The position numbers and the translations under genes were made by a program. The notes beneath the pieces are model-generated. The model saw only the letters and a program-made list of their open reading frames with translations. It made no database searches and was not told where the DNA came from. A DNA stretch of 52,660 nucleotides from a virus: positions 1 to 52,660 of the IMG/VR virus record IMGVR_UViG_3300005537_000007; one strand, given 5' to 3'. Shown here in pieces: positions 23,470 through 45,332 of this stretch; position 1 is the stretch's first letter, and every line of letters begins with the position of its first letter.

Positions 23470-23522
23470 ATCTTACTGACCGAGCCGTCAGTTTGCAAGT
23501 GATGCGCGTCACAGTTTATACT
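23470..23522. promoter_or_regulatory. Divergent promoter-operator module A
   Basis: ACTGAC-CGAGCC-GTCAGT (23475-23492) is a perfect palindrome. TTGCAA (23493-23498), itself palindromic, can serve as -35 both ways: leftward with a 17-bp spacer to TAAGAT (23475-23470), rightward with 18 bp to TATACT (23517-23522). The leftward spacer is the operator. The rightward spacer holds GTGA-TGCGCG-TCAC (23499-23512). A near-identical module lies at 45280-45332. Confidence 0.75.
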
Positions 23523-23553
23523 TCGGTCGATTTTCCATAATCTGGGCGAAACC

Positions 23554-24162
23554 ATGAAGCACCTTGGCACGTACCTTGCGCATTACATGGCGCTCCTGGC
23601 AGGACTCGCCGCCGGTGTCGCATCCTTCAAGCCAGCCCTATTCGAAACCTTCTTGCCGTTCCTCGGCCCCCACGCGGCCGGGATCATCGGTGGTGCCGCC
23701 GCCCTCGTGGCCGCGCTCCATGCGCTCGGGATCGACCCGCCAAAGGCCGCCGCCGCGCTCCTCGTGGGCGTACTGTCCGCCGGTACGTTACATGGTTGCG
23801 CCACGCCGCCCGCTGGCGCATCGCTCGCCCAGGCCGCGCCCTTCGTGGAAGCTGCCGTCGATGTCGCCGTCGCTACGGCCGAATCTAAGGGCCTACAGCC
23901 GGCGCAAATCAATGCCATCGCCAAACTTGCCTTGGCCGCCGACGAGGGCTCCACGGCGAGCCTGAGCGCGATTGCAGTTGTCGTCAACGCGGAGCTGTCG
24001 AAGCTCGCGCTACCGCCGGGTGATGTAGCCGCCGCGCTCATCCTCGAGGATGCGTTGCGCGTGGCCATCACGGCGCGACTTGCCAACGATCCCAGTGCCG
24101 CGCAGGTGCAGGCCGCCGCCGCGCTCGTGATTCAGGATGTCATCAATGCTACCGGAGGTTAA
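23554..24162 (+). CDS. Hydrophobic Ala-rich protein, lysis-region
   Basis: 202 residues. The first 95 contain three hydrophobic stretches (about 8-24, 38-60, 64-82), ending in a lipobox-like VLSAGTLHGC. The rest is an Ala-rich helical domain. Its location after the lysozyme under module A suggests a holin or envelope protein. I do not recognise a family. Confidence 0.6.
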   Translation: MKHLGTYLAHYMALLAGLAAGVASFKPALFETFLPFLGPHAAGIIGGAAALVAALHALGIDPPKAAAALLVGVLSAGTLHGCATPPAGASLAQAAPFVEAAVDVAVATAESKGLQPAQINAIAKLALAADEGSTASLSAIAVVVNAELSKLALPPGDVAAALILEDALRVAITARLANDPSAAQVQAAAALVIQDVINATGG

Positions 24163-24163
24163 T

Positions 24164-24610
24164 GTGCGTAAATTTTACACTGGCGTTGTACTCGCGCTGC
24201 TGAGCGCTCTGACGGTTACCGCCGTTCAGGCGCAGACTGTCAACGAATCGGCTGCGGTGGCATGGACTGCTCCGACCAATGACGCCAACGGCATTCCGCT
24301 GGCGGGATCGCCCAATGCGGTCACGTCGTACAATGTCTATGCAAGCACCACGCCGCTGACGGCGGTACCGACCACGGCGCCGTTGGCTGTCGTCACCGCG
24401 CCGGCCACCACCGTAACGGGCTCCGTGTCCGCCTCCGTGGGAGCTACGTTGTACGTGTACGTGACGGCCTGTAACGCCACGGGGTGCTCGGCATTGTCAA
24501 CACCAGCTACAAAGCTCGTGGCAATCCCAGGGGCGCCGCCGGGTATCCCCACCAGCGTCACGCTGACCGTCACCGTCGTCCCTGTTGCGTCCAGCGCCAC
24601 GAAACCGTAA
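24164..24610 (+). CDS. Exported fibronectin-III-like protein
   Basis: 148 residues from a GTG behind GGAGG. A clear Sec signal peptide (KFYTGVVLALLSALTVTAVQA|Q) precedes an Fn3-like beta domain (AVAWTAPTNDANGIPLAGSPNAVTSYNVYAS...LYVYVTACNATGCS). Likely periplasmic or surface-exposed after infection. Its stop overlaps the hydrolase start. Confidence 0.65.
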   Translation: MRKFYTGVVLALLSALTVTAVQAQTVNESAAVAWTAPTNDANGIPLAGSPNAVTSYNVYASTTPLTAVPTTAPLAVVTAPATTVTGSVSASVGATLYVYVTACNATGCSALSTPATKLVAIPGAPPGIPTSVTLTVTVVPVASSATKP

Positions 24611-25209
24611 TGTCGGTCCACGTGCACCTTGTCCACGGGATTTTGGACCCCGTTGGACACGCCGGCTTGCTGAAATTAGTGCCCTACCTTCAGCAAGCCG
24701 GCTTTGACGTGCGCGTGCCCGACTACGGGCTCATTACGGCGGTCGAGACACGGCTGGTTAACCCAATCATGACTCGATGTCTACGCCCCTACATGGAGCC
24801 GGGCGATGTATACATCGGACACAGCAACGGTTGCGCCATTGGTTACGATCTCGTGGCGTCCGGCGCGTGGGACCTTGCCGGGCTCGTGCTGATCAACGCC
24901 GCCCTGAAACGCGATATCAAGCTCCCAGGCCGGATGTGGGCTGACGTGTACTATAACGAAGGTGATGACGCGACCGTGGCCGCTGTAGCGGCTGCAGCGA
25001 TCGGGCTAACCGATCCGGTGTGGGGCAGCATGGGCCACGGGGGCTACGAAGGTAGCAACCCCCTCATCACGAACATCGATTGCGGCCACCCGGCTCCGAC
25101 CGATCTGCCGGCCGTTTCCGGGCACGGCGATATCTTCACGGACGCCAAAATCACCGCTTGGGCGCCGTTCATCGTGCGCCGAATTCTCAAGCATCTGCGC
25201 ACGCCGTAA
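24610..25209 (+). CDS. Alpha/beta-hydrolase fold esterase
   Basis: 199 residues. HLVHGILDPVGHAGL supplies the oxyanion-hole HG. GHSNG (Ser72) is the nucleophile elbow, and SGHGDIF near the C-terminus gives the catalytic His. No signal peptide. Placement in the lysis region recalls lipid- or envelope-ester-cleaving lysis enzymes such as LysB, but the substrate is unknown. Confidence 0.75.
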   Translation: MSVHVHLVHGILDPVGHAGLLKLVPYLQQAGFDVRVPDYGLITAVETRLVNPIMTRCLRPYMEPGDVYIGHSNGCAIGYDLVASGAWDLAGLVLINAALKRDIKLPGRMWADVYYNEGDDATVAAVAAAAIGLTDPVWGSMGHGGYEGSNPLITNIDCGHPAPTDLPAVSGHGDIFTDAKITAWAPFIVRRILKHLRTP

Positions 25210-25338
25210 CGCTTTGAGCTCACGCTTCGTGTAGCCGCCGAGCTTAGCCCGATACAGCGCGCGGTCTGCGGCGCGTAATCGCTCAGCATTCTTCTGGTAA
25301 TACTTGGCTCTAGCGCGGCGTTGTGCTTCAGTCGTCAT
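25006..25338 (-). CDS. Basic hypothetical protein at the end of the polymerase operon
   Basis: 110 residues. The N-terminal half is a convincing basic helical protein (TTEAQRRARAKYYQKNAERLRAADRALYRAKLGGYTKRELKALRRAQ), as in small phage proteins at replication-operon ends. The C-terminal half lies antisense to the hydrolase gene for 204 bp, so its true end could be affected by sequence change. Family unknown. Confidence 0.5.
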   Translation of the reverse strand: MTTEAQRRARAKYYQKNAERLRAADRALYRAKLGGYTKRELKALRRAQMLENSAHDERRPSGDFGVREDIAVPGNGRQIGRSRVAAIDVRDEGVATFVAPVAHAAPHRIG

Positions 25339-25505
25339 TTACAACTCGCATTTTGTCTGGTGGGATGTCATGCCAATGGCGCCAAAAACACCCGCGCCAG
25401 TCGCTCACGCATCGCCAGGGGTTGACACACTTTGGCCATGTAGGCGCACATCTCAAGCCATCCCCGCATACGGTTGTGCAAAGCATCCGCGTGGGGATAT
25501 CTTCC

Positions 25506-27836
25506 TCAGTCCCATTTGCCATGGCGCTCTGTTTCCTCGGCTCCCGGCGCTTTGATTGGCCAAGGTCGGCCCCAATCGTCCACGGCCCATGACTTACCCA
25601 CGTTAACAATCGACAAATACTCCGGAGTATTGCCGCGCCCGTTCTCGACCTCGCAAACGATCTCGTCATGAGTGTGCATTACGGGTAGGTACAAACCGCC
25701 CTCATCCAGCGTAGTTAACGCATCGGCTTGAAACTCGCGAGCCACCTTGGCCACCACGTTTTGTGTAAGCACACCGCCATACAAAAACATCTGATTCCAA
25801 CCTATCGGGCCTTTCTGTATGTTGCTATTCCACCCATGATAACTTAACTCCAACTCCCACGGCGCTGCGTACTCGCGTCGCGAGGGTCGTAGCTCAGGCT
25901 GATGATATATGAGTGGGTCGCCATCTCCCGGTGGCATGCAATATAACGCATCCCCGTGGCACGCGAAGCGGACGCCACGATAGCCATAACATCCTCCTCG
26001 ATCCAGTACTGCAGAAATGGCCGCTCCCTCCAGCCCGTATAATTCGGGGCGCTCGGCATCCGTGAACTTGCAGCGCGTTTGACCGCCCCAGAATTCGGTA
26101 ATAGCGGGTTGTTTCGCACGAACGGCGAGGATGATTTTTTTGATCGCGTCGTCACTTCCAAGAATTTCGTCGGCTCCGAATCGCTTCCAGCCAGCGATCC
26201 AGGCGCCAAAGTCCGCTGACAATACAGCCAACTTTCCCAACTGTCTATCTTCATGATGTTTGCCGTGTTGTTTTTTATATTCGATGTATAACTCGACTGT
26301 GTTACCAGTAATCTGCGCGGCCATCGCCTCGTATATTTTGCCGTGCGTGTGGAAAACATCCAGGCGCCATTTTTCCCCGGCGAGCGCTGAGGTTACTACG
26401 GCCTGAATGGCATTGTAGTCGCTAGCAATAAGCCTACAACCACCCCGAGCAACCACGAGAGAACGCAGGCAATCCGCGATGCATTCGAGCGCATCCCCAT
26501 ATACAGATTCAACAAACTCAAGACTACGGCTAGAAATAACTGCCAGCGCATGCTCCACCTTTTCCGGTTTGTCTAACTTACCCTTCCAAACATTGGCCAT
26601 CTGGACACCTTGGCCATTCCATAGCATGGTGTGGGCTGCAGCGTAGGCGTACTGCTGCCGGAGCCGACCATCCGCGCACACTTCGGCGCGCATCTTGTAA
26701 AGCTTTTTGACGCTGGCGAATCCGAGTTTTTGACGGATTTCCAACACTCGGCGCACCGCGTCCGGTAATCCGCGGTCATTGACCGATCCCGCTACGACAT
26801 CTTCATCCAGATTGGGCAACGACACCCCGTGGATGTCACGCATCCATTCGAGGATTTTAGACACTTCATTGGCCGTCTTGACGCGGTTGGCCGTGATGCC
26901 GCGCAACTCACCTTCGTACTTGGCAAACACCTGTTCCATGATGCATATGCAATCTTCCATGGCTTTGGTGTCTATCTGCATGCCGCGCTCGTTGACGCGG
27001 TCGGAGGCTTGCGCGATACGCAGCTCTCGCGGCGATAGGTCCGGTATGCGGTTGTTCAGCGCCATCTCGGACACAACGTCCTGAATGTTGTATCGGTAGA
27101 AATTCGCGAAATCATCGGCCGCAGTCTGTGGCGTCCAGCGTAGCGAGGGGTTAGCCTTCGTGGGGTTGCGCGGCACGGTGAGCTTGCGTATCAATGCATC
27201 ACCGGCCGGATCTTTCTGAAGGTGCGCTTCGGAGGGCAGGAAGATAACTTTGCCCGCATTCTTCAACGCGCGTGGATACCCCGACACCGCAGCCTTAGCT
27301 TGCGTGTCGCGGCACTGCTCGAGCTTTAACTCAGGCCAACCCCACGTGGGAACACAGTACCCGTTCCATACTTCGTACTCGAAACCTACGACGTTCCAAC
27401 CTCCGAGAAGGCCGCCATTAGCCACGTAATCCAATAACGCCCATGGATGAGCGTTGGGCATCGTATTGTAGCATCCCGTAATTACTTGCTCAGGCCATTT
27501 ACCTGTCGTCCAATGAGGTACCCAATGCTGCGGCCCGCGCCCATCCAACATATCGTACGCCAGCGACAGCACCTCAAACGATGGGTGCCGCACATAATTG
27601 CGCACGCCTACAACGGGCAACCCACGGTTGGTGTCGGCAATGCCGGGCAGGCTGGTGAGCCGGCGCGTGGGCTCAACCCATGCGGGTACTGGAAATTCCA
27701 GATTCTTACGCTTCACCCATTTGTGGTATCCAGGTACGTCTTCCCACGCGAAACCGGCTTCGCTGTAAGTTTCGAAATCGCACGAAGGTAACAGCGTGCT
27801 CCATCCGTGGAGCGCCGGCACGCGGGAATAGTTCAT
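25506..27836 (-). CDS. DNA polymerase, family A with 3'-5' exonuclease
   Basis: 776 residues. Exonuclease motifs: DFETYSE (D20, E22), NVVGFE (about 148-153), and YNIQD (about 249-253). Polymerase motif A is SDYNAIQAVV (D473), motif B RQLGKLAVLSADFG (R531, K535), and motif C HTHDE (about 721-725). Motif A has Gln where the family usually has Glu (DYSxIE), a residue near the incoming sugar. The gene is coupled (ATGA) to a small upstream gene and lies with DUF2815 and DUF2800 genes, a common phage replication set. Confidence 0.9.
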   Translation of the reverse strand: MNYSRVPALHGWSTLLPSCDFETYSEAGFAWEDVPGYHKWVKRKNLEFPVPAWVEPTRRLTSLPGIADTNRGLPVVGVRNYVRHPSFEVLSLAYDMLDGRGPQHWVPHWTTGKWPEQVITGCYNTMPNAHPWALLDYVANGGLLGGWNVVGFEYEVWNGYCVPTWGWPELKLEQCRDTQAKAAVSGYPRALKNAGKVIFLPSEAHLQKDPAGDALIRKLTVPRNPTKANPSLRWTPQTAADDFANFYRYNIQDVVSEMALNNRIPDLSPRELRIAQASDRVNERGMQIDTKAMEDCICIMEQVFAKYEGELRGITANRVKTANEVSKILEWMRDIHGVSLPNLDEDVVAGSVNDRGLPDAVRRVLEIRQKLGFASVKKLYKMRAEVCADGRLRQQYAYAAAHTMLWNGQGVQMANVWKGKLDKPEKVEHALAVISSRSLEFVESVYGDALECIADCLRSLVVARGGCRLIASDYNAIQAVVTSALAGEKWRLDVFHTHGKIYEAMAAQITGNTVELYIEYKKQHGKHHEDRQLGKLAVLSADFGAWIAGWKRFGADEILGSDDAIKKIILAVRAKQPAITEFWGGQTRCKFTDAERPELYGLEGAAISAVLDRGGCYGYRGVRFACHGDALYCMPPGDGDPLIYHQPELRPSRREYAAPWELELSYHGWNSNIQKGPIGWNQMFLYGGVLTQNVVAKVAREFQADALTTLDEGGLYLPVMHTHDEIVCEVENGRGNTPEYLSIVNVGKSWAVDDWGRPWPIKAPGAEETERHGKWD

Positions 27837-27991
27837 AGCTTATTAGGGCGTGTTATTACACCGAAGGGACTGGCTGCGCATACACCAGGAATGCTTTCTC
27901 GTCTTTCGACGTATGGCTGCACCCACTCATTAAAGCTGGCTACTTCTAGGCCCACTACCCTAATCTTGCTACTCGATCGAGAGTAATTCAC
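27833..27991 (-). CDS. Small coupled protein (52 aa)
   Basis: GTG start overlaps the previous stop and its own stop overlaps the polymerase ATG (ATGA). Sequence VNYSRSSSKIRVVGLEVA...NEWVQPYVERRESIPG. Probably translated by coupling; no family recognised. Confidence 0.5.
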   Translation of the reverse strand: MNYSRSSSKIRVVGLEVASFNEWVQPYVERRESIPGVCAASPFGVITRPNKL

Positions 27992-28152: not shown

Positions 28153-28173
28153 TGCTCACATCTCCTTTAGTTC

Positions 28174-31860: not shown

Positions 31861-31910
31861 TTGGGTTGCAGGCGGAGCGCATCGTATGCTTAACTGACGC
31901 CCTCGTCAAC
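31861..31910. promoter_or_regulatory. Divergent promoter-operator region B
   Basis: Operator ACTGAC-GCCCTC-GTCAAC (31893-31910). Leftward: TTGACG (31909-31904), 17 bp, TACGAT (31886-31881) for the replication operon. Rightward: TTGGGT (31861-31866), 18 bp, TATGCT (31885-31890) for the helicase operon. The opposing -10 elements overlap and the operator covers the leftward -35 and the rightward start region. Confidence 0.65.
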
Positions 31911-34483: not shown

Positions 34484-34668
34484 CCAAGGGCCAGAACTGC
34501 AACCCTCGGCCAGAGTTTCATGTCTGCGGGCATTGCGGCGACTTTGCACGCCTCCCGAAGCGGGTCCAATGTAAGTGTCGTCCTGAATACAAATACTTTT
34601 CGTATCCTCCGCAGCAGCGTCCCGAGACAGGCCACCCAATGCTGTGCGGGTGCAAGGAGTGTATGTGA
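34480..34668 (+). CDS. Small multi-Cys zinc-binding protein
   Basis: 62 residues with CGHCG, CKCRP and CGCKEC, seven cysteines in zinc-ribbon-like pairs. Overlaps both neighbours by ATGA/GTGA and carries the ribosome site (aaggag) of the methylase within its 3' end. Role unknown. Confidence 0.6.
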   Translation: MTKGQNCNPRPEFHVCGHCGDFARLPKRVQCKCRPEYKYFSYPPQQRPETGHPMLCGCKECM

Positions 34669-35459
34669 AAGACCATCCGTCCAAGGAGACGGTGACGATA
34701 GGGGATTCGACGCTGTATCTCGGTGACTGTCGCGAGATTATCCCGACGCTGTCAACCGTCGATCTCGTTGTGACGAGCCCACCCTATAACCTTGGTGCGG
34801 CCCCTTGGGCCAGACTCGGGCATTGGAAGCCGGGCGGCAAGTCAGGCGGTCGAGATAAGTGGAAGGTTGGCGCGAGCGGCCAAGCCGGTGTCAAATACGG
34901 CGTCCACATCGATGCATTGCCGTGGCCCGAGTACGTGGAGTGGCAGCGCGCCATTGTCTCGTTGCTCTGGAGCCGACTGTCCGATACCGGAGCGATTTTT
35001 TACAACCACAAACCGCGCGTGATCGGTAGCCGGGTATGGACGCCCTTTGAGCTAATCCCACCCGAAGTCTCGCTGAGGCAAATCGTTACCTGGGCGCGAC
35101 CGGGGGGCGTGAATTTCAACAAAACGGCATTTGTCTCAACGTCGGAATGGGTCATGTTGCTAGCGAGGGAGGCATTTCGCCTCAAGTCGCGTGGCGCATC
35201 CGGCCTTGGGGATGTCTGGCAGATGACGCCCGAGCGAAATGAGCATCCGGCGCCGTTTCCCGTAGAGTTGCCCAGGCGCGCGCTGGAGGCTACGGATGCG
35301 CCGGCCTGTCTTGATCCATTCATGGGAAGCGGGACAACCGGCGTCGCGTGTGCGCGTCTTAGGCGCCGATTTATCGGTATTGAGATTGATCCTCGCTATT
35401 TCGAAATGGCTTGCCGGCGAATCGAGGCTGAGCACGTGCAAGGGAGACTTTTGGCATGA
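34665..35459 (+). CDS. DNA methyltransferase, beta-class amino-MTase
   Basis: 264 residues from the GTG at 34665 (AAGGAG upstream). Motif IV TSPPYN near the N-terminus and motif I LDPFMGSGTTGVA near the C-terminus give the beta-class order. SPPY is typical of N4-cytosine enzymes but does not exclude N6-adenine. No cognate restriction endonuclease is visible, so it probably protects phage DNA or marks regulatory sites. Confidence 0.82.
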   Translation: MKDHPSKETVTIGDSTLYLGDCREIIPTLSTVDLVVTSPPYNLGAAPWARLGHWKPGGKSGGRDKWKVGASGQAGVKYGVHIDALPWPEYVEWQRAIVSLLWSRLSDTGAIFYNHKPRVIGSRVWTPFELIPPEVSLRQIVTWARPGGVNFNKTAFVSTSEWVMLLAREAFRLKSRGASGLGDVWQMTPERNEHPAPFPVELPRRALEATDAPACLDPFMGSGTTGVACARLRRRFIGIEIDPRYFEMACRRIEAEHVQGRLLA

Positions 35460-36103
35460 GCAACGTAGACCGGACCTCAAATCCCGTAAGCCTCCCGACT
35501 TGGGAGGAATGTAAAGCGAAGGTGGACGCCGAAATGGCTACGCCTCTAGAAGCATTCATCTATGAGAACGAGCCCGCTCTCACGGAAAAGGCGCAGGACT
35601 TCGTTCACAAGTGCATTCCGAACTACAGCCGGCGCGCTGATGAGCAATTTCGCGGAATGTTGGCTGCTCTGATTGCGTTCGTTCGAGCACCGGACGAGAC
35701 GTCTGCGACTTGCTGGGTATCTGTGAGCGACCAACTCCCGGAACTTGGCAAGCTGGTGATGATTTGCATCGGCGGGTTCATATCCATCGGTCAGCGCTTC
35801 GAACGCAATCGATGGGCCGATCTTGCGGGAGAGTTTTACGCTCGGTCTATCACGCACTGGATGCCAATCCCTGCAGGGCCTGGGTCATCTGTGGAACCGA
35901 CACCGCCTCACCCCGGCCCGTCGATCGCGAAAGCGTTTGCTAACTCGCCGCGACGGGTCGATGTGAAAGCCAGCGGTGAGCCTGTGTCATTACCGGAAGA
36001 ATCGGGATGTCGATGCGGCTGCTATTCGGGTGGCTGTGGCCGACCGGATGGGTGTCGATGCGGGCGTGAGTGCCCGTGCTACATCTCCGGTCGCGGAGCT
36101 TGA
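35456..36103 (+). CDS. DUF551-containing protein with Cys-rich tail
   Basis: 215 residues. CWVSVSDQLPELGKLVMIC...ITHWMPIP is a DUF551 domain (about 86-140), common in phages and of unknown function. The last 35 residues are very Cys-rich (CRCGCYSGGCG..GCRCGRECPC), suggesting metal binding. Overlaps the methylase by ATGA. Confidence 0.65.
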   Translation: MSNVDRTSNPVSLPTWEECKAKVDAEMATPLEAFIYENEPALTEKAQDFVHKCIPNYSRRADEQFRGMLAALIAFVRAPDETSATCWVSVSDQLPELGKLVMICIGGFISIGQRFERNRWADLAGEFYARSITHWMPIPAGPGSSVEPTPPHPGPSIAKAFANSPRRVDVKASGEPVSLPEESGCRCGCYSGGCGRPDGCRCGRECPCYISGRGA

Positions 36104-36127
36104 CACTCCCGTCACTTAACCTATACC
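36099..36127 (+). promoter_or_regulatory. Promoter-operator C before the TetR-like gene
   Basis: CTTGAC-ACTCCC-GTCACT (36099-36116) is a variant of the phage palindrome. TTGACA (36100-36105) is a consensus -35 inside it, with TATACC (36122-36127) 16 bp downstream, close to the ATG at 36139. Binding here would block the promoter, consistent with autoregulation. Confidence 0.6.
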
Positions 36128-36138
36128 GTATACAAACC

Positions 36139-36432
36139 ATGCTGAAAGACACTATTCTCGGGGCGGCTGTGCAGCTCGCGCGCAAATGCGGCTACCAGAA
36201 TCTAACACGGCTCAACGTGGCGCACGCCGCCGAATGCGGCACAGGGACTGTCAACTATCATTATGCGTCCATGGACTTACTACGCACCGCCGTTGTTGAG
36301 TACGCCATCCAACATGAAATATTACCCATCATCGCGGAAGCACTCACGGCTCACCACGGGGCAACACAGAATATATCCGATGCGCTGAGGCGAAAGACAG
36401 CCCGCGAATTGTCCGGCATCGACCGATTGTAG
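36139..36432 (+). CDS. TetR-like DNA-binding protein (HTH domain only)
   Basis: 97 residues. TILGAAVQLARKCGYQNLTRLNVAHAAECGTGTVNYHYASMDLLRTAVV aligns with the TetR N-terminal helix-turn-helix, including the recognition helix before the NYHY turn. Only about 40 residues follow, so the usual ligand-binding domain is missing. Its own promoter overlaps a palindrome repeated at least eight times elsewhere, which makes it the best candidate regulator of those sites. The ATG is chosen because upstream frame residues are not domain-like. Confidence 0.8.
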   Translation: MLKDTILGAAVQLARKCGYQNLTRLNVAHAAECGTGTVNYHYASMDLLRTAVVEYAIQHEILPIIAEALTAHHGATQNISDALRRKTARELSGIDRL

Positions 36433-39093: not shown

Positions 39094-39176
39094 TGGCTGG
39101 GGCTGGAGGATTCGAACCCCCGCCGCTCGGCCCTTGTGGCCGACGGTTCCGAGCTGCACCCACCTGTGCCGCCCCA
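39094..39176 (-). tRNA. tRNA-like element, possibly degenerate
   Basis: Leftward, the 3' half has a good T arm (GGGGG-TTCGAAT-CCTCC), an acceptor 3' strand AGCCCCA pairing with TGGGGC at the 5' end, and an encoded CCA. GCAC-AGGTGG-GTGC gives a D arm. The middle is abnormal: TCGGC-CACAAGG-GCCGA can form a stem with a 7-base loop but lacks U33 (anticodon would be CAA), and extra bases lie before it. It could be a degraded type II tRNA. It follows a leftward small-gene operon. Confidence 0.4.
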
Positions 39177-39302
39177 TAGACTTACCGTGGGTGCTGATCG
39201 CCGAGCGCGACGGCCCAAGCAATCAACGCCAACATAATAGAATGCTTTTTCGGGCCGCGCTTGCCGCAGCCCTCACATACAACCCAACTACAACGGTCAC
39301 GC

Positions 39303-39422
39303 TCAGTGCGTATCGTCAGCCGGCGGTGCGGGCAACGTTGAGCGTTTGAGGAACGTTCCGGTGCAGTAGATGAACGCGGCATAGGCAACGATAACCGCCA
39401 AAACAATGAGTGCTTTAACCAT
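39303..39422 (-). CDS. Single-TM small protein (39 aa)
   Basis: MVKALIVLAVIVAYAAFIY is a membrane helix, followed by CTGTFLKRSTLPAPPADDTH. First gene after leftward promoter D. Similar to tiny phage membrane proteins that may act at the envelope. Confidence 0.6.
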   Translation of the reverse strand: MVKALIVLAVIVAYAAFIYCTGTFLKRSTLPAPPADDTH

Positions 39423-39445: not shown

Positions 39446-39475
39446 AGCCTAGCGCCGACTGACGGGAGAGTCAAC
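39446..39475 (-). promoter_or_regulatory. Leftward promoter-operator D
   Basis: TTGACT (39474-39469), 17 bp, TAGGCT (39451-39446). Operator variant ACTGAC-GGGAGA-GTCAAC (39458-39475) overlaps the -35 and part of the spacer. A second inverted repeat, CCCGAT-CTGAT-ATCGGG, lies at 39429-39445 just downstream, near the expected transcription start. Confidence 0.55.
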
Positions 39476-39689: not shown

Positions 39690-39692
39690 GGT

Positions 39693-39872: not shown

Positions 39873-39950
39873 GGGGTGACTCCTGCGTTATTCGATGGTG
39901 CGCATCGTAGTGCTGCAAGCGAGACTCGTCCGTGAACCTCGCCGCAGTTT

Positions 39951-40142
39951 TCACACTCCACGTCGTTCTAACTCCGCCTTAAGTAAAGCTGCCGCCGTCC
40001 CCAGGTTACAGTTGAGTGCTTCCATGAGTTCCTTGCACGCCCAACCGAACGCAGCGGCCGACTCAGGCCCCGGCAACGCGGCCACGGTGACGTAGGTCGT
40101 TACCGCGTGACTGAGCGCCACCTGAACGAACCCGGCGTTCAC
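39951..40142 (-). CDS. Small hypothetical helical protein (63 aa)
   Basis: GTG start overlaps the upstream stop (GTGA). Sequence NAGFVQVALSHAVTTYVTVAALPGPESAAAFGWACKELMEALNCNLGTAAALLKAELERRGV, mostly helical and with two Cys. No family recognised. Confidence 0.55.
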   Translation of the reverse strand: MNAGFVQVALSHAVTTYVTVAALPGPESAAAFGWACKELMEALNCNLGTAAALLKAELERRGV

Positions 40143-40867
40143 GGCCCACCCCCGGTATGCGGCGCCACACCCGCCATCGCCGGTCGATTCAGCAGCACGC
40201 GGCCCACTCGGGTGCGCGCGGGGCCTCGATCAGGCGGCCGGGCTCGCGCGGTGGTCTCGGCGGGTTCTCCCTCGTCGCCCAGGCCATCCAGCAGGGCCTG
40301 TAGATCCTCCAGGATCGCCTCCAGCAATTCTCGAGCTGCGGCTGGATCCACACGCGCCTGCCGCTCTATCGCCCGCTGTAGGCCCTCAGAATTGCGCTGG
40401 ATCTGCCGCGCCACCCGGTCGGTTGGCTCCTGGGGCTGTCCGGCGCGCCGCAGGGAGTCTTTCGTCGCAGTCTCGGGGTCCACGGTGCGCAGGTCGCCGC
40501 CGGCCCTCACGTAGCCCACGAGGGTCGCCTTCGCCGTGCGGGCGAACCCGCTACGACTGTTCCGTGCCAGCATCCGGCGGCGCCGCTCGTCGCGCGGTAG
40601 CTCGAGATCATCGGCGATATCCTCCGTGACCACTCCACGCAGCACTGCGGCGTACAACGGCGCCTCGATCCGCTCGAGCGCCGCCAGCTGTGTTTCCGCG
40701 CTCATGGGTCGTCCACGCCCACGTGGGGTTCCAAGCTGTGCTTGCACCGCTACCAGCAACACGCGCAAGTAAGTGAGCCCACCACCTTGCGAGGCTACAA
40801 CGTGGGAAGTGTGATCACGGGCCAATTGCTCCACCTGGGCCTCGGTCATGACGTACTTGGATTTCAT
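40139..40867 (-). CDS. Hypothetical regulatory-looking protein (242 aa)
   Basis: The start is taken at MKSKYVMTEAQ because the upstream frame overlaps operator E. Helical, with a very basic centre (LELPRDERRRRMLARNSRSGFARTAKATLVGYVRAGGDL) and an Arg/Pro-rich tail. The basic segment resembles N- or C-terminal parts of phage proteins with an RN-R-NFARTA-T pattern, but no function is known to me. Operator E lies 20 bp upstream of its start. Confidence 0.6.
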   Translation of the reverse strand: MKSKYVMTEAQVEQLARDHTSHVVASQGGGLTYLRVLLVAVQAQLGTPRGRGRPMSAETQLAALERIEAPLYAAVLRGVVTEDIADDLELPRDERRRRMLARNSRSGFARTAKATLVGYVRAGGDLRTVDPETATKDSLRRAGQPQEPTDRVARQIQRNSEGLQRAIERQARVDPAAARELLEAILEDLQALLDGLGDEGEPAETTARARPPDRGPARTRVGRVLLNRPAMAGVAPHTGGGP

Positions 40868-40886
40868 GTTCAGTACTCTCAACAAC

Positions 40887-40904
40887 ACTGACGGATGTGT
40901 CAGC
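40887..40904. promoter_or_regulatory. Operator E (palindrome variant)
   Basis: ACTGAC-GGATGT-GTCAGC, one base from the perfect palindrome. It lies just upstream of the leftward gene starting at 40867. No good -35/-10 pair frames it, so it may act from a downstream position. Confidence 0.6.
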
Positions 40905-40990
40905 ACACTGAGATATGCAGGAGGCGTGCCAGCGCGTTGCGTAGCAATACACACACTTAACTTGCTACAGCTGTAGCGTTGCGCTGCAAT

Positions 40991-41008
40991 ACTGACCGAC
41001 TCGTCAGT
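40991..41008. promoter_or_regulatory. Operator F (perfect palindrome)
   Basis: ACTGAC-CGACTC-GTCAGT, between the terminator at 41049-41076 and the gene at 40867. A second dyad, CTACAG-CTGTAG (about 40965-40976), lies 15 bp away. The flanking hexamers (GCATTT/TATTGC leftward) are weak as a promoter. Confidence 0.62.
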
Positions 41009-41048
41009 AAATGCTACATAACACTACAACCGTATTATCGTTGAACAT

Positions 41049-41076
41049 AAAAAAAGCCCCGGTTGTGAGCCGGGGC
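41049..41076 (-). terminator. Intrinsic terminator of the 42.7-41.1 kb leftward operon
   Basis: Leftward reading: GCCCCGG (41076-41070), 7-base loop, CCGGGGC (41062-41056), then seven T (41055-41049). A 7-bp all-GC stem with U-tract, about 45 bp past the stop of the last gene (41121). Confidence 0.9.
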
Positions 41077-41120
41077 AAAGAACGTTGGCCAGTCGCGGAC
41101 CCAACGTTCAGGGGGTCAAT

Positions 41121-41273
41121 TCAATTGTAGCGACTGTTCAAGTAATCCACAAATGTTTCTACATCGGATGGAGACCAATCGCGGCCATCTCGAATGAACA
41201 CAGCATCGGGAATGTCCACGCTGCGAAATTCCCACTCGCCCAAATTGCGCAGGTAGCGTGCTTTCCATTTCAT
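41121..41273 (-). CDS. Small hypothetical protein (50 aa)
   Basis: MKWKARYLRNLGEWEFRSVDIPDAVFIRDGRDWSPSDVETFVDYLNSRYN, with GAGGTG upstream and ATGA overlap with the lipoprotein gene. Last gene before the terminator. Confidence 0.62.
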   Translation of the reverse strand: MKWKARYLRNLGEWEFRSVDIPDAVFIRDGRDWSPSDVETFVDYLNSRYN

Positions 41274-41755
41274 ATCGGGCACCTCGTGCCGCTCGGCCGG
41301 ATTCCTTCGCGGAAATTGCGAGCCACCGCGGCACCTGAATAGACGAATGACACAACGTACCATGTCTGACGTGCGATCTTCCACGCGCGCATGCTATCCG
41401 GGTGTTCGACGCTCTCGCGGGCTACCTGCACATCGAGCCACGAGGAGACAAACGAGTGAACGCCCGCCATCAGCGCGTTGACGGCGATCACCTTCGATTC
41501 GGAGGGATGCGGCCCGCCGTACATCAGCCGCGCCAATGGGTCGCCTTCGAAATAACACACGGGATGCCGCGCGATCTGAACGGTTTGTGCGGTGTCCACG
41601 GTGTCTAAAGCTTGCCACACGGCTTCCTGGTATTGCGAGGAGCGCTCGCTAGGCTGCAACGGCATGGGCAGCATAGCGCAACCGGGCAGCAGGAGTTGAA
41701 TGAGCAACACGGCCAGAATCGCACCGATGTAGTAATAGCGTTCGTGGATGCGCAC
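41270..41755 (-). CDS. Phage lipoprotein
   Basis: 161 residues from a GTG behind GGAG. A basic N-terminus, hydrophobic core and lipobox LLLPGC predict lipidation. The mature part (TVDTAQTVQIARHPVCYFEGDPLARLMYGGPHPSESKVIAVNALMAGVHSFVSSWL...) resembles lipoproteins common in small-gene regions of phages; a superinfection-exclusion or envelope role is only a guess. Confidence 0.72.
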   Translation of the reverse strand: MRIHERYYYIGAILAVLLIQLLLPGCAMLPMPLQPSERSSQYQEAVWQALDTVDTAQTVQIARHPVCYFEGDPLARLMYGGPHPSESKVIAVNALMAGVHSFVSSWLDVQVARESVEHPDSMRAWKIARQTWYVVSFVYSGAAVARNFREGIRPSGTRCPI

Positions 41756-41757
41756 GG

Positions 41758-41973
41758 TTATATCTCCAGTGGGATAACATCGACCCAAGCCCCCAAGGGT
41801 GCAAGATGATACACCGTCGCTCGCGCGAGATGCACATCGGCTAACGGCACATACATCTCTGCGTTCCATAAAGGGCCTACAAACAACTTCCATTTGTGTC
41901 GAATTGCCGTTTCTACGAAACCCAAGCGTGTATCTACACAGATCGATGGTGGTGTGTCGTTCAGGCGTATCAT
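41758..41973 (-). CDS. Small hypothetical protein (71 aa)
   Basis: MIRLNDTPPSICVDTRLGFVETAIRHKWKLFVGPLWNAEMYVPLADVHLARATVYH... Ribosome-like GGGTGATGC precedes the ATG. Its stop region carries the ribosome site of the lipoprotein gene. Family unknown. Confidence 0.58.
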   Translation of the reverse strand: MIRLNDTPPSICVDTRLGFVETAIRHKWKLFVGPLWNAEMYVPLADVHLARATVYHLAPLGAWVDVIPLEI

Positions 41974-41976
41974 GCA

Positions 41977-42336
41977 TCACCCGATGAAGAAACAACTACC
42001 CAGGAACGCTATCCGCACATCCGCGCGATCTCGATGAGCGTAATACGCGTCATTTAGAAACTGCAGTGCGCTCAATCGAGACACCCGAACATACGCGGCC
42101 ACGCGGAATGCCGGGCCAAATTCGACTTTAGGCGGAGCGAACTGGTCAACGTGTACGTGAAACGTGCGACCGCTGGAGTTGTGTATCAGTCGGCACGCCT
42201 CTTCATAATCCACGTGGAAGACTCGGATCGTTTCGGCACCATTAAGCTGGTGGATCGAGTCGGTTGTTTCCTTGCCTTCCACGGTGAGAATGTTCGCCTT
42301 GCCACCCTCTGACGGAGCTACACAATACATGCTCAT
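41977..42336 (-). CDS. Hypothetical protein (119 aa)
   Basis: MSMYCVAPSEGGKANILTVEGKETTDSIHQ...FHVDYEEACRLIHNSSGRTFHVHVDQFAPPKVEFGP. Start chosen at the ATG overlapping the upstream stop (ATGA). Alternating strands; family unknown. Confidence 0.58.
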   Translation of the reverse strand: MSMYCVAPSEGGKANILTVEGKETTDSIHQLNGAETIRVFHVDYEEACRLIHNSSGRTFHVHVDQFAPPKVEFGPAFRVAAYVRVSRLSALQFLNDAYYAHRDRADVRIAFLGSCFFIG

Positions 42337-42387
42337 GGCAACAGGCCCCACCGCGGGCTGGTGCGCATCACATGGACGTGGTGTCTG
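42331..42387 (+). repeat. 57-bp imperfect direct repeat, copy 1
   Basis: About 51 of 57 bases match 42516-42572. Each copy encodes (leftward) the end of one gene and the start of the next, so two neighbouring proteins share a C-terminal HVMRTSPRW-LLP tail. Confidence 0.75.
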
Positions 42388-42521
42388 CGCAATTGCTTGG
42401 AATATCGGTACAGGTTACGCGCAAGCTCCAGATTGAAGAACGGGTTGCGCTGGTTCCAAGCCCGCACACGTTCGCGGAAATCCGAAGACACCGCACCCCG
42501 CATCACGGTGCGACCGCTCAT
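42333..42521 (-). CDS. Small hypothetical protein with shared tail (62 aa)
   Basis: MSGRTVMRGAVSSDFRERVRAWNQRNPFFNLELARNLYRYSKQLRRHHVHVMRTSPRWGLLP. Its last 14 residues nearly repeat those of the next gene upstream. Start overlaps the upstream stop (ATGA). Confidence 0.55.
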   Translation of the reverse strand: MSGRTVMRGAVSSDFRERVRAWNQRNPFFNLELARNLYRYSKQLRRHHVHVMRTSPRWGLLP

Positions 42522-42572
42522 GGCAGCAGACTCCACCGCGGGCTGGTGCGCATCACATGGATGCGGTGTCCG
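42516..42572 (+). repeat. 57-bp imperfect direct repeat, copy 2
   Basis: Partner of 42331-42387, 185 bp away. The pattern suggests local duplication of a gene end together with the next ribosome site and start. Confidence 0.75.
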
Positions 42573-42640
42573 TAGCCTATGCGGTCCCACCCCGCACGGG
42601 CGGCCAGCATGGCTTCGATTACAAAGCGGCGTACGTTCAT
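42518..42640 (-). CDS. Small hypothetical protein with shared tail (40 aa)
   Basis: MNVRRFVIEAMLAARAGWDRIGYGHRIHVMRTSPRWSLLP. C-terminal tail duplicated in the next gene. Coupled (ATGA) to both neighbours. Confidence 0.52.
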   Translation of the reverse strand: MNVRRFVIEAMLAARAGWDRIGYGHRIHVMRTSPRWSLLP

Positions 42641-42735
42641 ATGCCGCGCACCTTGCTGCGGCGATCGCGTTTAATCGGCTCCTGCGCCCACGGGTCGCGC
42701 GGGGCTACGGGTGGGGCATTGTCGTAGGGGTTCAT
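42637..42735 (-). CDS. Very small Pro-rich protein (32 aa)
   Basis: MNPYDNAPPVAPRDPWAQEPIKRDRRSKVRGI with AGGAG ten bases upstream. First gene after leftward promoter G. Confidence 0.55.
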   Translation of the reverse strand: MNPYDNAPPVAPRDPWAQEPIKRDRRSKVRGI

Positions 42736-42765
42736 AGCTGGGGCTCCTCGAGTGACTGTGTGCGT

Positions 42766-42808
42766 AGAATACTGACGGGGCGGTCAGTCGTCAAGTGAAA
42801 TACATCAC
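42766..42808 (-). promoter_or_regulatory. Leftward promoter-operator G
   Basis: TTGACG (42794-42789), a 17-bp spacer, TATTCT (42771-42766). The perfect operator ACTGAC-GGGGCG-GTCAGT (42771-42788) fills the spacer. GTGA-AATACA-TCAC (42795-42808) abuts the -35 upstream, in the same relative position as in modules A and I. Confidence 0.75.
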
Positions 42809-42810
42809 AA

Positions 42811-43197
42811 TCACTCGCTTTGGTTACGCGGGTCTTCGATCTCGTACGCCAAGTCGCGCTTGCTCCAATACTCACAAGCCTCCTGCGCACCGGCCGGTAG
42901 CTGGCCACCCCGCTTGACGCGCCAAAATTCGAAAATGCAACGCTGCAAATACAAGCGCAACTCGATGCGCTCCGCGTTGGTGCTTTCCTCCAAAGTCAAT
43001 AGCTTTTCGCTTTGGTAGGTTTTCACCCCGTCAAACGGCATGAGCTTCGGCGACACCACCACGCTTACGCACGTCACGCAACCGCCCGTGCTGGTATACC
43101 GCTTCGAATAGTGGCCGTACTTACAGGGCTTACCCGTGGTGAAGAACTTTTCGCCAGCTCGCGCCGCCAGCAATCGTTGTGAATAGATCGAAGTCAT
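42811..43197 (-). CDS. Hypothetical zinc-binding protein (128 aa)
   Basis: N-terminal FFTTGKPCKYGHYSKRYTSTGGCVTC is a C-x2-H/C-x2-C arrangement like the zinc part of endonuclease VII-like phage proteins, but a catalytic HNH is not evident. The C-terminal half is helical (ERIELRLYLQRCIFEFW...). First leftward gene from the AT-rich gap. Confidence 0.58.
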   Translation of the reverse strand: MTSIYSQRLLAARAGEKFFTTGKPCKYGHYSKRYTSTGGCVTCVSVVVSPKLMPFDGVKTYQSEKLLTLEESTNAERIELRLYLQRCIFEFWRVKRGGQLPAGAQEACEYWSKRDLAYEIEDPRNQSE

Positions 43198-43391
43198 ATT
43201 GGCTATTACCTATTAATTAAGAACGCCACTATCCTCGCAGCTATTCATTCTTGCGTCAATAATTCGACGACGCCCACCCCCTGCTTCTCTCTATATTATT
43301 AAACCCTATTACTTATTTTTACTCTTCTACATTCTATATATATCTCACATAATACCTTTTAATAATTGCGTTAAAGGGTAGGGGACATACC

Positions 43392-43409
43392 CGTGACGGT
43401 ACGGTCAGT
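43392..43409. promoter_or_regulatory. Operator H (palindrome variant)
   Basis: CGTGAC-GGTACG-GTCAGT; the TGAC-N6-GTCA core is intact. It lies upstream of the tandem TGCAAGA repeats, echoing the operator-TTGCAA order of modules A and I. Confidence 0.55.
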
Positions 43410-43415
43410 CATTCT

Positions 43416-43442
43416 TGCAAGATGCAAGATGCAAGATGCAAG
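43416..43442. repeat. Tandem TGCAAGA repeat (about four units)
   Basis: Three exact 7-bp units TGCAAGA and a fourth TGCAAG. The first overlaps a TTGCAA as in the -35 of modules A and I. Possible iteron or expansion of that box. Confidence 0.8.
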
Positions 43443-43461
43443 CTCGTGGTGATCGCGTTAC

Positions 43462-43529
43462 ATAAGTGTGGACTTATATGAAAACTGACGACACTTAAGC
43501 GATTGCTTGACTAATAAGCGTAGGCTTAT
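43462..43529. promoter_or_regulatory. Two ATAAG-N6-CTTAT palindromes before terS
   Basis: 43462-43477 and 43514-43529, starting 52 bp apart (about five helical turns). The second overlaps a plausible terS promoter (TTGCTT, 17 bp, TTATAC). A protein dimer pair on one face of the DNA is possible. Confidence 0.5.
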
Positions 43530-43567
43530 ACATTGATTTTTAACCGCAAACCTACATACTTTTACGC

Positions 43568-44485
43568 ATGAACCAAATTGCGACAGTTCCCGCGGGCACC
43601 CCCGTGGAGGTAGTTGAAAAGTCGCGCGCGATGGTGCGCGTGGAAGCGGCGCGCAAAGCGTGCAACGCGGCCGAAGCTTCGTTCGCTGAACACTGGGCCG
43701 CAACATCCAACAAGGCTAAAGCGTACCGATTGGCCATGGGCTACGACGGTACAAAGAAAGGCGCGAAGGCGTGGGGGCCAGCGTTTCAGTATCAACGTGC
43801 GATTGAGTATTCCTACAAGCCAGCAGTGCAAGAGTATTTCCAGGCGTTGAAGGATCTTGCGTGCGAGAACGCGGTGATCAACATTCAACGCATCCTGGAA
43901 CATGACAAGGCAATTGTGCAGGCGGCGGAAACATCCAACGATCTATCACGCCACGTGTGGCTCAATTGCCGCTACTGCCACGGTGCCAACAACGCGTATC
44001 AGTGGATTGATGATGCGGAGTATCGGCAAGCCATGGCGAAATGGTTTGAACAGGTCGGCGCGTTGAAGGGGGATCAACCCGCGCCCGCGCAACCGGACGA
44101 CTCGGGCGGCTATGGTTTCGAACAGTGGGCCAAGCCCAACGCCGATTGCCGCCGCTGCCTGGGGCTCGGCGAGCAGCGCACGCTTATCGCGGACACGACC
44201 GAGCTGGAGGGACCGGCCGCTGCGCTCTACAAGGGCGTGAAAGCCAAAGCGGACGGCTCAATCGAGTTGATTACGCACGATGTGGACAAAGCCAAGGAGC
44301 GACTGCTGAAGGCCGCAGGCGCGTATGGTGACTCGGCTAGCGACGTGGCCCGCGGCGCGGCGGCGGGGGCTGCTGCGGGGGCGGCGGCTGCTGGGGCGGC
44401 TCAGGTAGCAGCCCGTACAGCGACTGTCGCAGTGACGCTTTCGGATGAGGAAGCGGCGCGGATGTATTTGGAGCTGGCGGGTTAG
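43568..44485 (+). CDS. terS: Terminase small subunit
   Basis: 305 residues. A helical N-terminal half with AASFAEHWAATSNKAKAYRLAMGYDG...GPAFQYQRAIEYSYKPAVQEYFQALKDLA is typical of phage small terminases. It is followed by a zinc-finger-like pair (CRYCHG, CRRCLG) and an Ala/Gly-rich linker before a short C-terminal helix (LSDEEAARMYLELAG). It selects DNA for packaging with TerL encoded 0.9 kb away. Confidence 0.72.
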   Translation: MNQIATVPAGTPVEVVEKSRAMVRVEAARKACNAAEASFAEHWAATSNKAKAYRLAMGYDGTKKGAKAWGPAFQYQRAIEYSYKPAVQEYFQALKDLACENAVINIQRILEHDKAIVQAAETSNDLSRHVWLNCRYCHGANNAYQWIDDAEYRQAMAKWFEQVGALKGDQPAPAQPDDSGGYGFEQWAKPNADCRRCLGLGEQRTLIADTTELEGPAAALYKGVKAKADGSIELITHDVDKAKERLLKAAGAYGDSASDVARGAAAGAAAGAAAAGAAQVAARTATVAVTLSDEEAARMYLELAG

Positions 44486-44756
44486 CTATTGCCCGCGCTG
44501 TTGCGTCGATGCGTGCTTGATTAGTTAAAAACCACTCCACTAATGGGTCCACTAATGGGCTGAGTGGCGATTCAATCAATCGCCGAATGTGATCAATCCC
44601 AGCGCGCATGCCCGCGTATTCAGGATCGGGCGGCTTGACTCTCACTACAGATGCGAGCGCGAATACCCGGCGCTCCGCAGGCCACTCGCCCGTTCGTAAC
44701 AACCGATCTAACTCGCGTTTGCTGAGATTGCGGCGCATGGGGCGCATTGCTTTCAT
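44337..44756 (-). CDS. Hypothetical protein with Pro-rich tail, convergent with terS
   Basis: 139 residues. MKAMRPMRRNLSKRELDRLLRTGEWPAERRVFALASVVRVKPPDPEYAGMRAGIDHIRRLIESPLSPL looks like a real helical protein. The last 50 residues are Pro-rich and antisense to the Ala/Gly linker of terS. Ends inside terS by 149 bp. Confidence 0.55.
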   Translation of the reverse strand: MKAMRPMRRNLSKRELDRLLRTGEWPAERRVFALASVVRVKPPDPEYAGMRAGIDHIRRLIESPLSPLVDPLVEWFLTNQARIDATARAIANPPAPNTSAPLPHPKASLRQSLYGLLPEPPQQPPPPQQPPPPRRGPRR

Positions 44757-44863
44757 GAGCGTTCCTGCCACCACGCGAGCGCGGCGATAGCCAGGACGCT
44801 GATCACCGTGCCGCACACCGAGCCGATGATCACAAGCACCACTGTATGTGTTTCGCACATCAT
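44753..44863 (-). CDS. Single-TM small protein (36 aa)
   Basis: MMCETHTVVLVIIGSVCGTVISVLAIAALAWWQERS: one long membrane helix with a charged end. AAGGTG precedes the ATG pair. ATGA overlaps with both neighbours. Confidence 0.58.
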   Translation of the reverse strand: MMCETHTVVLVIIGSVCGTVISVLAIAALAWWQERS

Positions 44864-45039
44864 TCGACACCTTTGGGTAAATGCTTACGGTACTCTTCCA
44901 GCAGATCGTTCTGCGTGGAGTTGAACTGCGCCTCCAATCGCTCCACCTTGGCGCGTTGGGCCGCGAGCCGTTCCTTGTGCACGGCGAGCTGGTAGGCCAG
45001 TACGGCCAGCTCGCGGCGTAATTCTTCAAAGCGTGTCAT
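44860..45039 (-). CDS. Small coiled-coil protein (59 aa)
   Basis: MTRFEELRRELAVLAYQLAVHKERLAAQRAKVERLEAQFNSTQNDLLEEYRKHL is a near-continuous coiled coil. AAGGTGATGTG precedes the ATG. Could pair with the adjacent TM protein, in a spanin-like or holin-helper manner, but that is a guess. Confidence 0.6.
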   Translation of the reverse strand: MTRFEELRRELAVLAYQLAVHKERLAAQRAKVERLEAQFNSTQNDLLEEYRKHLPKGVE

Positions 45040-45251
45040 CACATCACCTTGAACACTTCGCCGAATTTGGCCGCGTGGGCCATAGTGTAGGCGTCTATGA
45101 ATTGTTGATTGGTGCAAGGCGAGACGATGGTGCTGTAGATGTGTTCGCGCAGCTCGTCGTCCATCAAATTTACCGCAGCATCGAAATCCACCAACCGACC
45201 GTTGATAGGGGCGCCAACGTACACCTTGCCATCTCCGAAAGAATCATTCAT
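45039..45251 (-). CDS. Small hypothetical protein (70 aa)
   Basis: MNDSFGDGKVYVGAPINGRLVDFDAAVNLMDDELREHIYSTIVSPCTNQQFIDAYTMAHAAKFGEVFKVM with GGAG upstream. First leftward gene of module I. No family recognised. Confidence 0.62.
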   Translation of the reverse strand: MNDSFGDGKVYVGAPINGRLVDFDAAVNLMDDELREHIYSTIVSPCTNQQFIDAYTMAHAAKFGEVFKVM

Positions 45252-45279
45252 TTGCGTATCTCCGTAACCAGTGATGCGA

Positions 45280-45332
45280 ACTATACTGACCGTCGCGTCA
45301 GTTTGCAAGTGATGCGCGTCACGCTTTACACT
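45280..45332. promoter_or_regulatory. Divergent promoter-operator module I
   Basis: ACTGAC-CGTCGC-GTCAGT (45285-45302), TTGCAA (45303-45308), GTGA-TGCGCG-TCAC (45309-45322). Leftward: TTGCAA, 17-bp operator spacer, TATAGT (45285-45280). Rightward: TTGCAA, 18 bp, TACACT (45327-45332) toward terL. Almost the same sequence as module A (23470-23522). Confidence 0.78.

What the first reader, a model, noticed from the sequence alone, without database searches (positions are those of the whole stretch)
23470..45332. Phage-wide operator family ACTGAC-N6-GTCAGT with a candidate phage TetR-like regulator
Nine intergenic sites share the palindrome: 23475-23492, 31893-31910, 36099-36116, 39458-39475, 40887-40904, 40991-41008, 42771-42788, 43392-43409 and 45285-45302. 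They sit at the promoters of the lysis set, pol and helicase operons, TetR/PrimPol, small-gene clusters and terL. TGAC/GTCA dyads are common TetR-family targets, and the phage encodes a TetR HTH protein (36139) whose own -35 lies inside one site. This looks like a single-regulator circuit timing most of the non-structural genome.
Basis: partly seen in the sequence, partly recalled or inferred. Interest (0 to 1): 0.82.

Follow-up and report, generated by a model that had tools for sequence, protein, structure and literature searches.

The report
Phage-wide operators of a small TetR repressor
This phage, and dozens of its relatives infecting very different bacteria, carry one small TetR-like protein gene together with several copies of a matching DNA palindrome placed on bacterial-type promoters, so one phage protein very probably switches off many phage genes at once, including an anti-CRISPR gene; the pairing does not appear to have been described before.

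Summary
The palindrome is real. All nine sites share an exact TGAC-N6-GTCA core; the window has 11 copies against 0.8 expected (max 4 in 300 shuffles), essentially only at spacing 6. An unsupervised palindrome scan finds the same dyad in Klebsiella, Edwardsiella, Pantoea, Pectobacterium, Vibrio and Acinetobacter phages carrying the same small TetR gene. In 79 metagenomic loci collected by a helicase (motif and TetR unused), TGAC-N6-GTCA occurs 207 times against 21 expected, every other spacing 10-28; 72 of 79 loci encode the TetR. TetR-less relatives (262 kb) show 3 sites, 4.2 expected. Sites overlap the -35, spacer or -10 of sigma70-type promoters, and often precede tetR itself. The 97-aa protein is predicted as a compact TetR HTH plus three helices (pLDDT 96). 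Best reading: an autoregulated, phage-encoded repressor of many host-type promoters. Corrections: the strong promoter at 45285 points away from terL, into an AcrIC5 anti-CRISPR homologue; the stronger promoter at 23475 points to a small minus-strand gene. Three such promoters also carry a CRP-like box abutting the -35, a lac-like layout. Binding, repression and timing remain untested. New variant of a known kind (dispersed-operator phage repressor, Aca-like promoter occlusion).

The parts
36139..36432 (+). tetR: 97-aa TetR-type regulator (PHROG 8723), candidate repressor
   Evidence: Pfam TetR_N E=8e-5, just below the gathering score; PHROG 8723 E=9e-24; AlphaFold2 pLDDT 95.7, pTM 0.87, six helices; Foldseek best PDB hits are TetR-family repressors, EilR-DNA 5vl9 first, E about 0.01, probability 1.00
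36099..36116 (.). operator over the tetR promoter (TTGAC of the left half is the -35, TTGACA 36100-36105; -10 TATACC 36122-36127 or TACCGT 36124-36129)
   Evidence: promoter score 11.0; 99% of random positions are below 10.5
45285..45302 (-). operator filling the spacer of a minus-strand promoter: TTGCAA (45303-45308), 17 bp, TATAGT (45280-45285)
   Evidence: score 13.1, highest of all
45042..45251 (-). AcrIC5-like anti-CRISPR protein, 70 aa, directly behind the 45285 promoter
   Evidence: Pfam PF22147 E=5e-18; PDB 7yhr AcrIC5 E=7e-14
42771..42788 (-). operator filling the spacer of a minus-strand promoter: TTGACG (42789-42794), 17 bp, TATTCT (42766-42771); small genes 42333-42735 downstream
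   Evidence: score 12.1
23475..23492 (-). operator filling the spacer of a minus-strand promoter: TTGCAA (23493-23498), 17 bp, TAAGAT (23470-23475); gene 23266-23439 (DUF7336) downstream. The self-complementary TTGCAA could also be the -35 of a plus-strand promoter (TATACT 23517-23522, 18 bp) towards 23554
   Evidence: (minus score 11.8)
31893..31910 (-). operator over the -35 of the pol/ssb/exonuclease operon promoter: TTGACG (31904-31909), 17 bp, TACGAT (31881-31886)
   Evidence: score 11.3
39458..39475 (-). operator over the -35 of a minus-strand promoter: TTGACT (39469-39474), 17 bp, TAGGCT (39446-39451); 39-aa gene 39303-39422 downstream
   Evidence: (score 9.3)
40991..41008 (.). exact operator upstream of 40142-40873(-); promoter assignment ambiguous
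40887..40904 (.). operator with one mismatch in the leader of 40142-40873(-)
43392..43409 (.). operator in the intergenic region upstream of terS-like 43568-44485; no good promoter overlaps it
830..847 (+). weaker additional core site with a plus-strand promoter (ATGGCA 801-806, 18 bp, TATACT 825-830) ahead of DUF7220 gene 891-1124
   Evidence: (score 9.8)
45309..45322 (.). CRP-like dyad GTGA-N6-TCAC abutting the -35 of the acr promoter
   Evidence: 3 of 4 copies in the window lie exactly 22.0 bp from an operator centre
42795..42808 (.). CRP-like dyad GTGA-N6-TCAC abutting the -35 of the 42771 promoter
23499..23512 (.). CRP-like dyad GTGA-N6-TCAC abutting the -35 of the 23475 minus-strand promoter

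Best explanation
The palindrome is the operator of the phage's own small TetR-type protein (36139-36432). Shown by computation: the dyad TGAC-N6-GTCA is enriched in phages carrying this protein, not in relatives without it; it lies on sigma70-type promoters used by host RNA polymerase, either covering the -35 (left half TTGAC is the -35), filling the 17-bp spacer, or overlapping the -10; and it often precedes tetR itself. Inferred: a TetR dimer on the dyad excludes RNA polymerase, so the protein represses its own promoter and those of the pol/exonuclease operon, the anti-CRISPR gene and several small-gene clusters. These promoters would fire when naked DNA enters and fall silent as TetR accumulates (negative feedback). 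At three sites a CRP-like box abuts the -35, suggesting host CRP activation plus phage TetR repression, as at lac.
For: Window: 11 cores against 0.8 expected. Unsupervised scans recover the same dyad in JD001 14/1.8, MSW-3 12/1.6, AAM22 13/2.0, PEAT2 17/2.1, RCIP0030 17/1.8, CP-T1 9/1.25, Scuro 5/0.5 (observed/expected). 79 IMG/VR loci found by helicase: 207 against 21.3 expected, spacing 6 only; 72 of 79 carry the TetR; TetR-less relatives 3 against 4.2. A site at -200..+75 of the tetR ORF in 23 of 72 loci, 3.1 expected. Promoter geometry: 56 of 67 intergenic sites in phage genomes and 77 of 125 in IMG/VR loci overlap a promoter-like pair, against 11.3 and 15.6 with shuffled flanks; seven window sites have promoter scores of 9.3-13.1, 95% of random positions being below 8.1. 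Fold: TetR-type DNA-binding domain, pLDDT 95.7.
Against: No binding or repression data. 18 of 72 TetR-bearing loci have no site and others only one; six of the 14 TetR-bearing phage genomes examined (SppYZU01, PLPE, CKB-S1, R9Y3, SFCi1, Psp6) are not clearly enriched. The protein lacks the usual TetR ligand/dimerisation core, and no dimer model could be made. The shuffled-flank control for geometry A partly reflects preference for T at -1, which may be operator rather than promoter. Three window sites (40887, 40991, 43392) have no clear overlapping promoter, so not every site need repress.
Confidence: 0.82

Rival explanations
1. The palindrome is the target of a host-encoded regulator that the phages have adopted; the phage TetR is coincidental.
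For: Sites sit on host-type sigma70 promoters; host regulators such as CRP may also act there.
Against: The same dyad with the same spacing occurs in phages of Klebsiella, Edwardsiella, Pantoea, Pectobacterium, Vibrio and Acinetobacter and tracks the phage tetR gene rather than the host; TetR-less relatives lack it; tetR's own promoter is a preferred location.
Confidence: 0.07
2. The phage TetR binds the dyad but acts mainly as a lysogeny or pseudolysogeny (immunity) repressor that silences most promoters, not as a temporal feedback regulator of lytic growth.
For: Many dispersed operators covering replication promoters resemble an immunity system; CP-T1, which has 9 sites, is reported temperate yet has none of the genes needed for the known lysogeny mechanisms (PMC3391216).
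Against: Relatives such as Vibrio phage 138 and MSW-3 are reported lytic; tetR is embedded in the replication operon; no integrase was seen among the window proteins tested.
Confidence: 0.2
3. The dyad is bound by TetR as an activator of late promoters.
For: At 23475 and 45285 the operator also lies just upstream of a possible plus-strand promoter whose -35 is the self-complementary TTGCAA (and sequence).
Against: Most sites overlap the -35, spacer or -10, positions typical of repression; the minus-strand promoters at these two sites score 11.8 and 13.1 against 3.3 and 7.3 in the plus-strand scan around them, a scan that does not reach the downstream TTGCAA promoters.
Confidence: 0.06
4. The repeats are promoter, restriction/methylation or chance sequence without a dedicated regulator.
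For: TTGAC is itself a -35 element; the phage encodes a DNA methyltransferase (34644-35459) near tetR.
Against: A promoter explains neither the mirror GTCA at exactly 6 bp nor the absence of any other spacing; sites are concentrated in intergenic DNA (126 of 207) and nearly absent inside the helicase gene.
Confidence: 0.04

Closest known systems
Aca (anti-CRISPR-associated) repressors
   Same: Phage HTH protein, inverted repeats inside the core promoter, repression of acr transcription and autoregulation (PMC9410906). Here too an acr gene and the regulator's own gene are under the same operator.
   Different: TetR-type rather than a described Aca family; not encoded next to acr (about 9 kb away); serves many operons including replication genes.
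Mycobacteriophage L5/Cluster A immunity repressors with stoperators
   Same: One phage repressor with many sites dispersed over the genome (PMC9283540, abstract).
   Different: Those sites are asymmetric, bound by a monomer, and the repressors also terminate elongation; here the sites are palindromes on promoters, and the protein is TetR-type.
TetR/QacR/EilR family repressors
   Same: HTH sequence and fold; palindromic operator in the promoter spacer, as engineered for EilR (PMC6127294).
   Different: 97 aa, no ligand-binding domain; regulates a phage-wide set rather than one adjacent pump; EilR's consensus operator has GGAC/GTCC halves 4 bp apart, not TGAC/GTCA 6 bp apart.
tetR of dwarf myoviruses PLPE, CP-T1 and 138 (Comeau et al. 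2012)
   Same: Same protein family.
   Different: That paper called it a co-opted bacterial regulator, of a type implicated in osmotic stress, and the words motif, palindrome and promoter do not occur in its text; CP-T1 in fact has 9 sites.
lac-type promoter (CRP plus repressor)
   Same: CRP-like GTGA-N6-TCAC box abutting the -35 with a repressor operator in the core promoter.
   Different: CRP binding is only inferred from consensus; repressor is phage-encoded.

Membership tests
TetR family of regulators | N-terminal TetR HTH domain | tested here: met
   Pfam TetR_N E=8e-5, 22.7 bits against a gathering score of 24, so just below cut-off on its own; profile of 57 homologues matches solved TetR proteins at E=3e-10; fold match to EilR and AmvR, probability 1.00, E about 0.01
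TetR family of regulators | C-terminal ligand-binding/dimerisation domain | tested here: not met
   97 aa; only three helices after the HTH; no PDB match reaches E 0.001. So a truncated, phage-specific branch that shares the DNA-binding domain, not a full-length TetR-family member
TetR family of regulators | Binds a palindromic operator as a dimer | not testable with these tools
   Palindrome co-occurs with the gene; binding and dimerisation not measured
Aca repressors | Inverted repeat within the core promoter of acr | tested here: met
   Operator fills the 17-bp spacer of the AcrIC5 promoter
Aca repressors | aca gene follows acr in the same operon | tested here: not met
   tetR is about 9 kb away in the replication operon; so not filed as an Aca
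Stoperator-type immunity repressors | Asymmetric sites dispersed over the genome | tested here: not met
   Sites are dyads on promoters
AcrIC5 anti-CRISPR (window 45042-45251) | Sequence homology to AcrIC5 | tested here: met
   PF22147 65.4 bits against a cut-off of 27; PDB 7yhr E=7e-14
CRP class II promoter | TGTGA-N6-TCACA near -41.5 | tested here: inconclusive
   Three exact GTGA-N6-TCAC dyads centred about 42 bp upstream of the inferred start, about one bp off canonical; host and CRP binding unknown

The most novel reading that the evidence does not exclude
A phage-specific, truncated TetR is the core master repressor of a large clade of tailed phages with this replication module (dwarf myoviruses and relatives, many hosts), uniting replication, anti-CRISPR and accessory genes in one autoregulated circuit that also reads host CRP, and in CP-T1 it is the missing (pseudo)lysogeny repressor.
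Probability: 0.25. Interest if true: 0.82.

Novelty: new variant of a known kind. Interest (0 to 1): 0.63.

Why it matters
It would give a mechanism for gene control in a widespread group of phages (including Klebsiella phages of the genus Jedunavirus) whose regulation is unexplained, link anti-CRISPR expression to a phage-wide repressor instead of a dedicated Aca, and offer a testable candidate for the unknown repressor of temperate Vibrio phage CP-T1. The operator also predicts regulons, promoters and small accessory genes, such as new anti-CRISPR candidates, directly from sequence.

Tried and rejected
DNA similarity search of the region in phage records: no match. Viral-contig scans with TetR or PrimPol alone found only a sister contig (identical to the window over the 15 kb held); an alignment of seven TetRs was too diverse to scan; the helicase alignment worked. 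Recognition helix against half-site: C at -1 is commoner in the window's nearest lineage (YH[YF]-type helices) than in others, but this is confounded by kinship and not used as proof. Pooled palindromes in subgroups lacking TGAC gave other dyads (e.g. AAATTnAATTT) not tied to a regulator. Tandem-HTH TetR (L054) folded without an alignment: pLDDT 47, uninformative. EilR operator compared: spacing differs, so not the same site. Literature searches found no report of the motif, but only open-access papers are held.
Full report
Observation. The nine sites exist as described and all share TGAC-N6-GTCA. The core occurs 11 times in 52.7 kb against 0.76 in dinucleotide shuffles (max 4 of 300), with 0-3 copies at every other spacing, and it is the best gapped palindrome of the window in a scan that was told nothing about it. 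A matrix scan adds 4108-4125 as the best site (it is in the training set) and 830-847 as a weaker one; 7642 and 33708 are imperfect.

What the protein is. 36139-36432 encodes 97 residues with a TetR HTH (Pfam E=8e-5, just below that model's cut-off; PHROG 8723 E=9e-24). With 57 sequences in the alignment AlphaFold2 gives a confident six-helix model (pLDDT 95.7, pTM 0.87) whose best solved matches are TetR repressors, EilR bound to DNA first. It lacks the usual C-terminal domain. Similar-length viral homologues exist (97-98 aa), and others have a second HTH in front (166-aa type).

Independent recurrence. Phages that carry this protein and had been picked only for that show the same dyad when scanned blindly: JD001, MSW-3, AAM22, Scuro, CP-T1, PEAT2, RCIP0030 (5-17 sites, 0.5-2.1 expected). 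Six others that carry the gene (SppYZU01, PLPE, CKB-S1, R9Y3, SFCi1, Psp6) are not clearly enriched.

Co-occurrence test. A helicase alignment (A2) was used to collect 80 IMG/VR loci without reference to the motif or TetR. Leaving out the window's own sister contig, 79 loci contain 207 TGAC-N6-GTCA (21.3 expected); spacings 0-5 and 7-15 give 10-28 each, and the reversed order GTCA-N6-TGAC gives 24. 72 loci encode the TetR. Relatives with this type of replication module, or with related pol or terminase genes, and no TetR hit (L019-L021, L030, L073, L184, L187, L188; 262 kb) have 3 sites, 4.2 expected. L183 and L186 carry only marginal TetR hits (E about 2e-6) and have 1 and 0 sites.

Where the sites sit. 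126 of 207 are intergenic; they pile up in the 500 bp before the helicase (28) and are nearly absent inside it. In 23 of 72 loci a site lies at the start of tetR, 3.1 expected, which indicates autoregulation. Relative to sigma70-type promoters three layouts recur: A, left half TTGAC is the -35 with a -10 about 17 bp on; B, the dyad fills the spacer; C, the dyad overlaps the -10. A or B fits 56 of 67 phage-genome sites and 77 of 125 IMG/VR sites, against 11.3 and 15.6 with shuffled flanks. In the window seven sites overlap promoters scoring 9.3-13.1 where 95% of random positions score below 8.1: tetR itself (+), the pol/exonuclease operon (31893, -), 39458 (-), 42771 (-), 23475 (-), 45285 (-) and 830 (+).

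Corrected targets. The strongest promoter of all, TTGCAA-[operator]-TATAGT at 45280-45308, points to the minus strand and its first gene, 45042-45251, is an AcrIC5 homologue (Pfam E=5e-18, PDB 7yhr E=7e-14). AcrIC5 inhibits type I-C CRISPR-Cas and its homologues are widespread (PMC7913775). The best promoter at 23475 likewise points to a small minus-strand gene (DUF7336), although its TTGCAA is self-complementary and a plus-strand promoter towards 23554 is possible. So terL and lysis are not the evident targets.

CRP-like boxes. Only four exact GTGA-N6-TCAC dyads occur in the window and three lie exactly 22.0 bp from the operators at 23475, 42771 and 45285, abutting the -35, close to the class II CRP position. 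In relatives L025 and L031 the same box also abuts the -35 although the operator layout differs there, so the box seems to follow the promoter, not the operator (sequences read by eye). The activator is inferred, not shown.

Mechanism. Shown by computation: association, position, autoregulatory placement. Inferred from position and from family knowledge: occlusion of RNA polymerase. Aca repressors give a precedent, with inverted repeats in the core promoter and tested repression (PMC9410906). Inferred with less certainty: early shut-off by accumulating repressor. The alternative that it is an immunity repressor is open, notably for CP-T1, which is temperate without known lysogeny genes (PMC3391216) and has nine sites.

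Known or new. Dispersed operators for one phage repressor are known (stoperators, PMC9283540), promoter repression of acr genes is known (Aca), and phage tetR genes have been annotated; none of the open-access papers found joins a phage TetR to a genome-wide operator set. Hence a new variant of a known kind.

Noticed in passing
window 45042-45251 (-): AcrIC5-like anti-CRISPR gene directly behind the strongest operator-bearing promoter; no homologue among the relatives' loci fetched, so it looks like accessory cargo plugged into the regulon.
   Followed up: yes
window 23499-23512, 42795-42808, 45309-45322: CRP-like GTGA-N6-TCAC dyads exactly 22.0 bp from operator centres, abutting the -35.
   Followed up: partly
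IMG/VR loci L039-L048, L068 and relatives: A second strong intergenic palindrome AGATAAAT-N1-ATTTATCT (27 AAATnATTT against 0.8 expected) in a subgroup that also has TGAC sites; regulator unknown.
   Followed up: no
L006, L010, L054, L057, L070, L089, L090, L097: TetR homologues of about 166-180 aa with a second, degenerate TetR-type HTH in front, possibly a covalent pseudo-dimer, mostly with TGAC-N6-GTCA sites in the same locus.
   Followed up: partly
L006 (SppYZU01): The word TGAC is very rare genome-wide (79 on both strands against about 300-630 in most relatives), largely through its trinucleotides; cause unknown.
   Followed up: no
window 34644-35459 and relatives CP-T1, CKB-S1, R9Y3, SFCi1: A DNA methyltransferase gene lies just before or close to tetR in several phages; methylation could modulate operator binding.
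   Followed up: no
window 39099-39180 (-): Sequence resembling a degenerate tRNA with a GGTTCGAATCC T-arm, not called by ARAGORN or Rfam; might be an attachment site or tRNA remnant.
   Followed up: no
window 36122-36139: The tetR start codon lies only about 10 bases after the predicted transcription start, with no obvious Shine-Dalgarno sequence, so its mRNA may be nearly leaderless.
   Followed up: no
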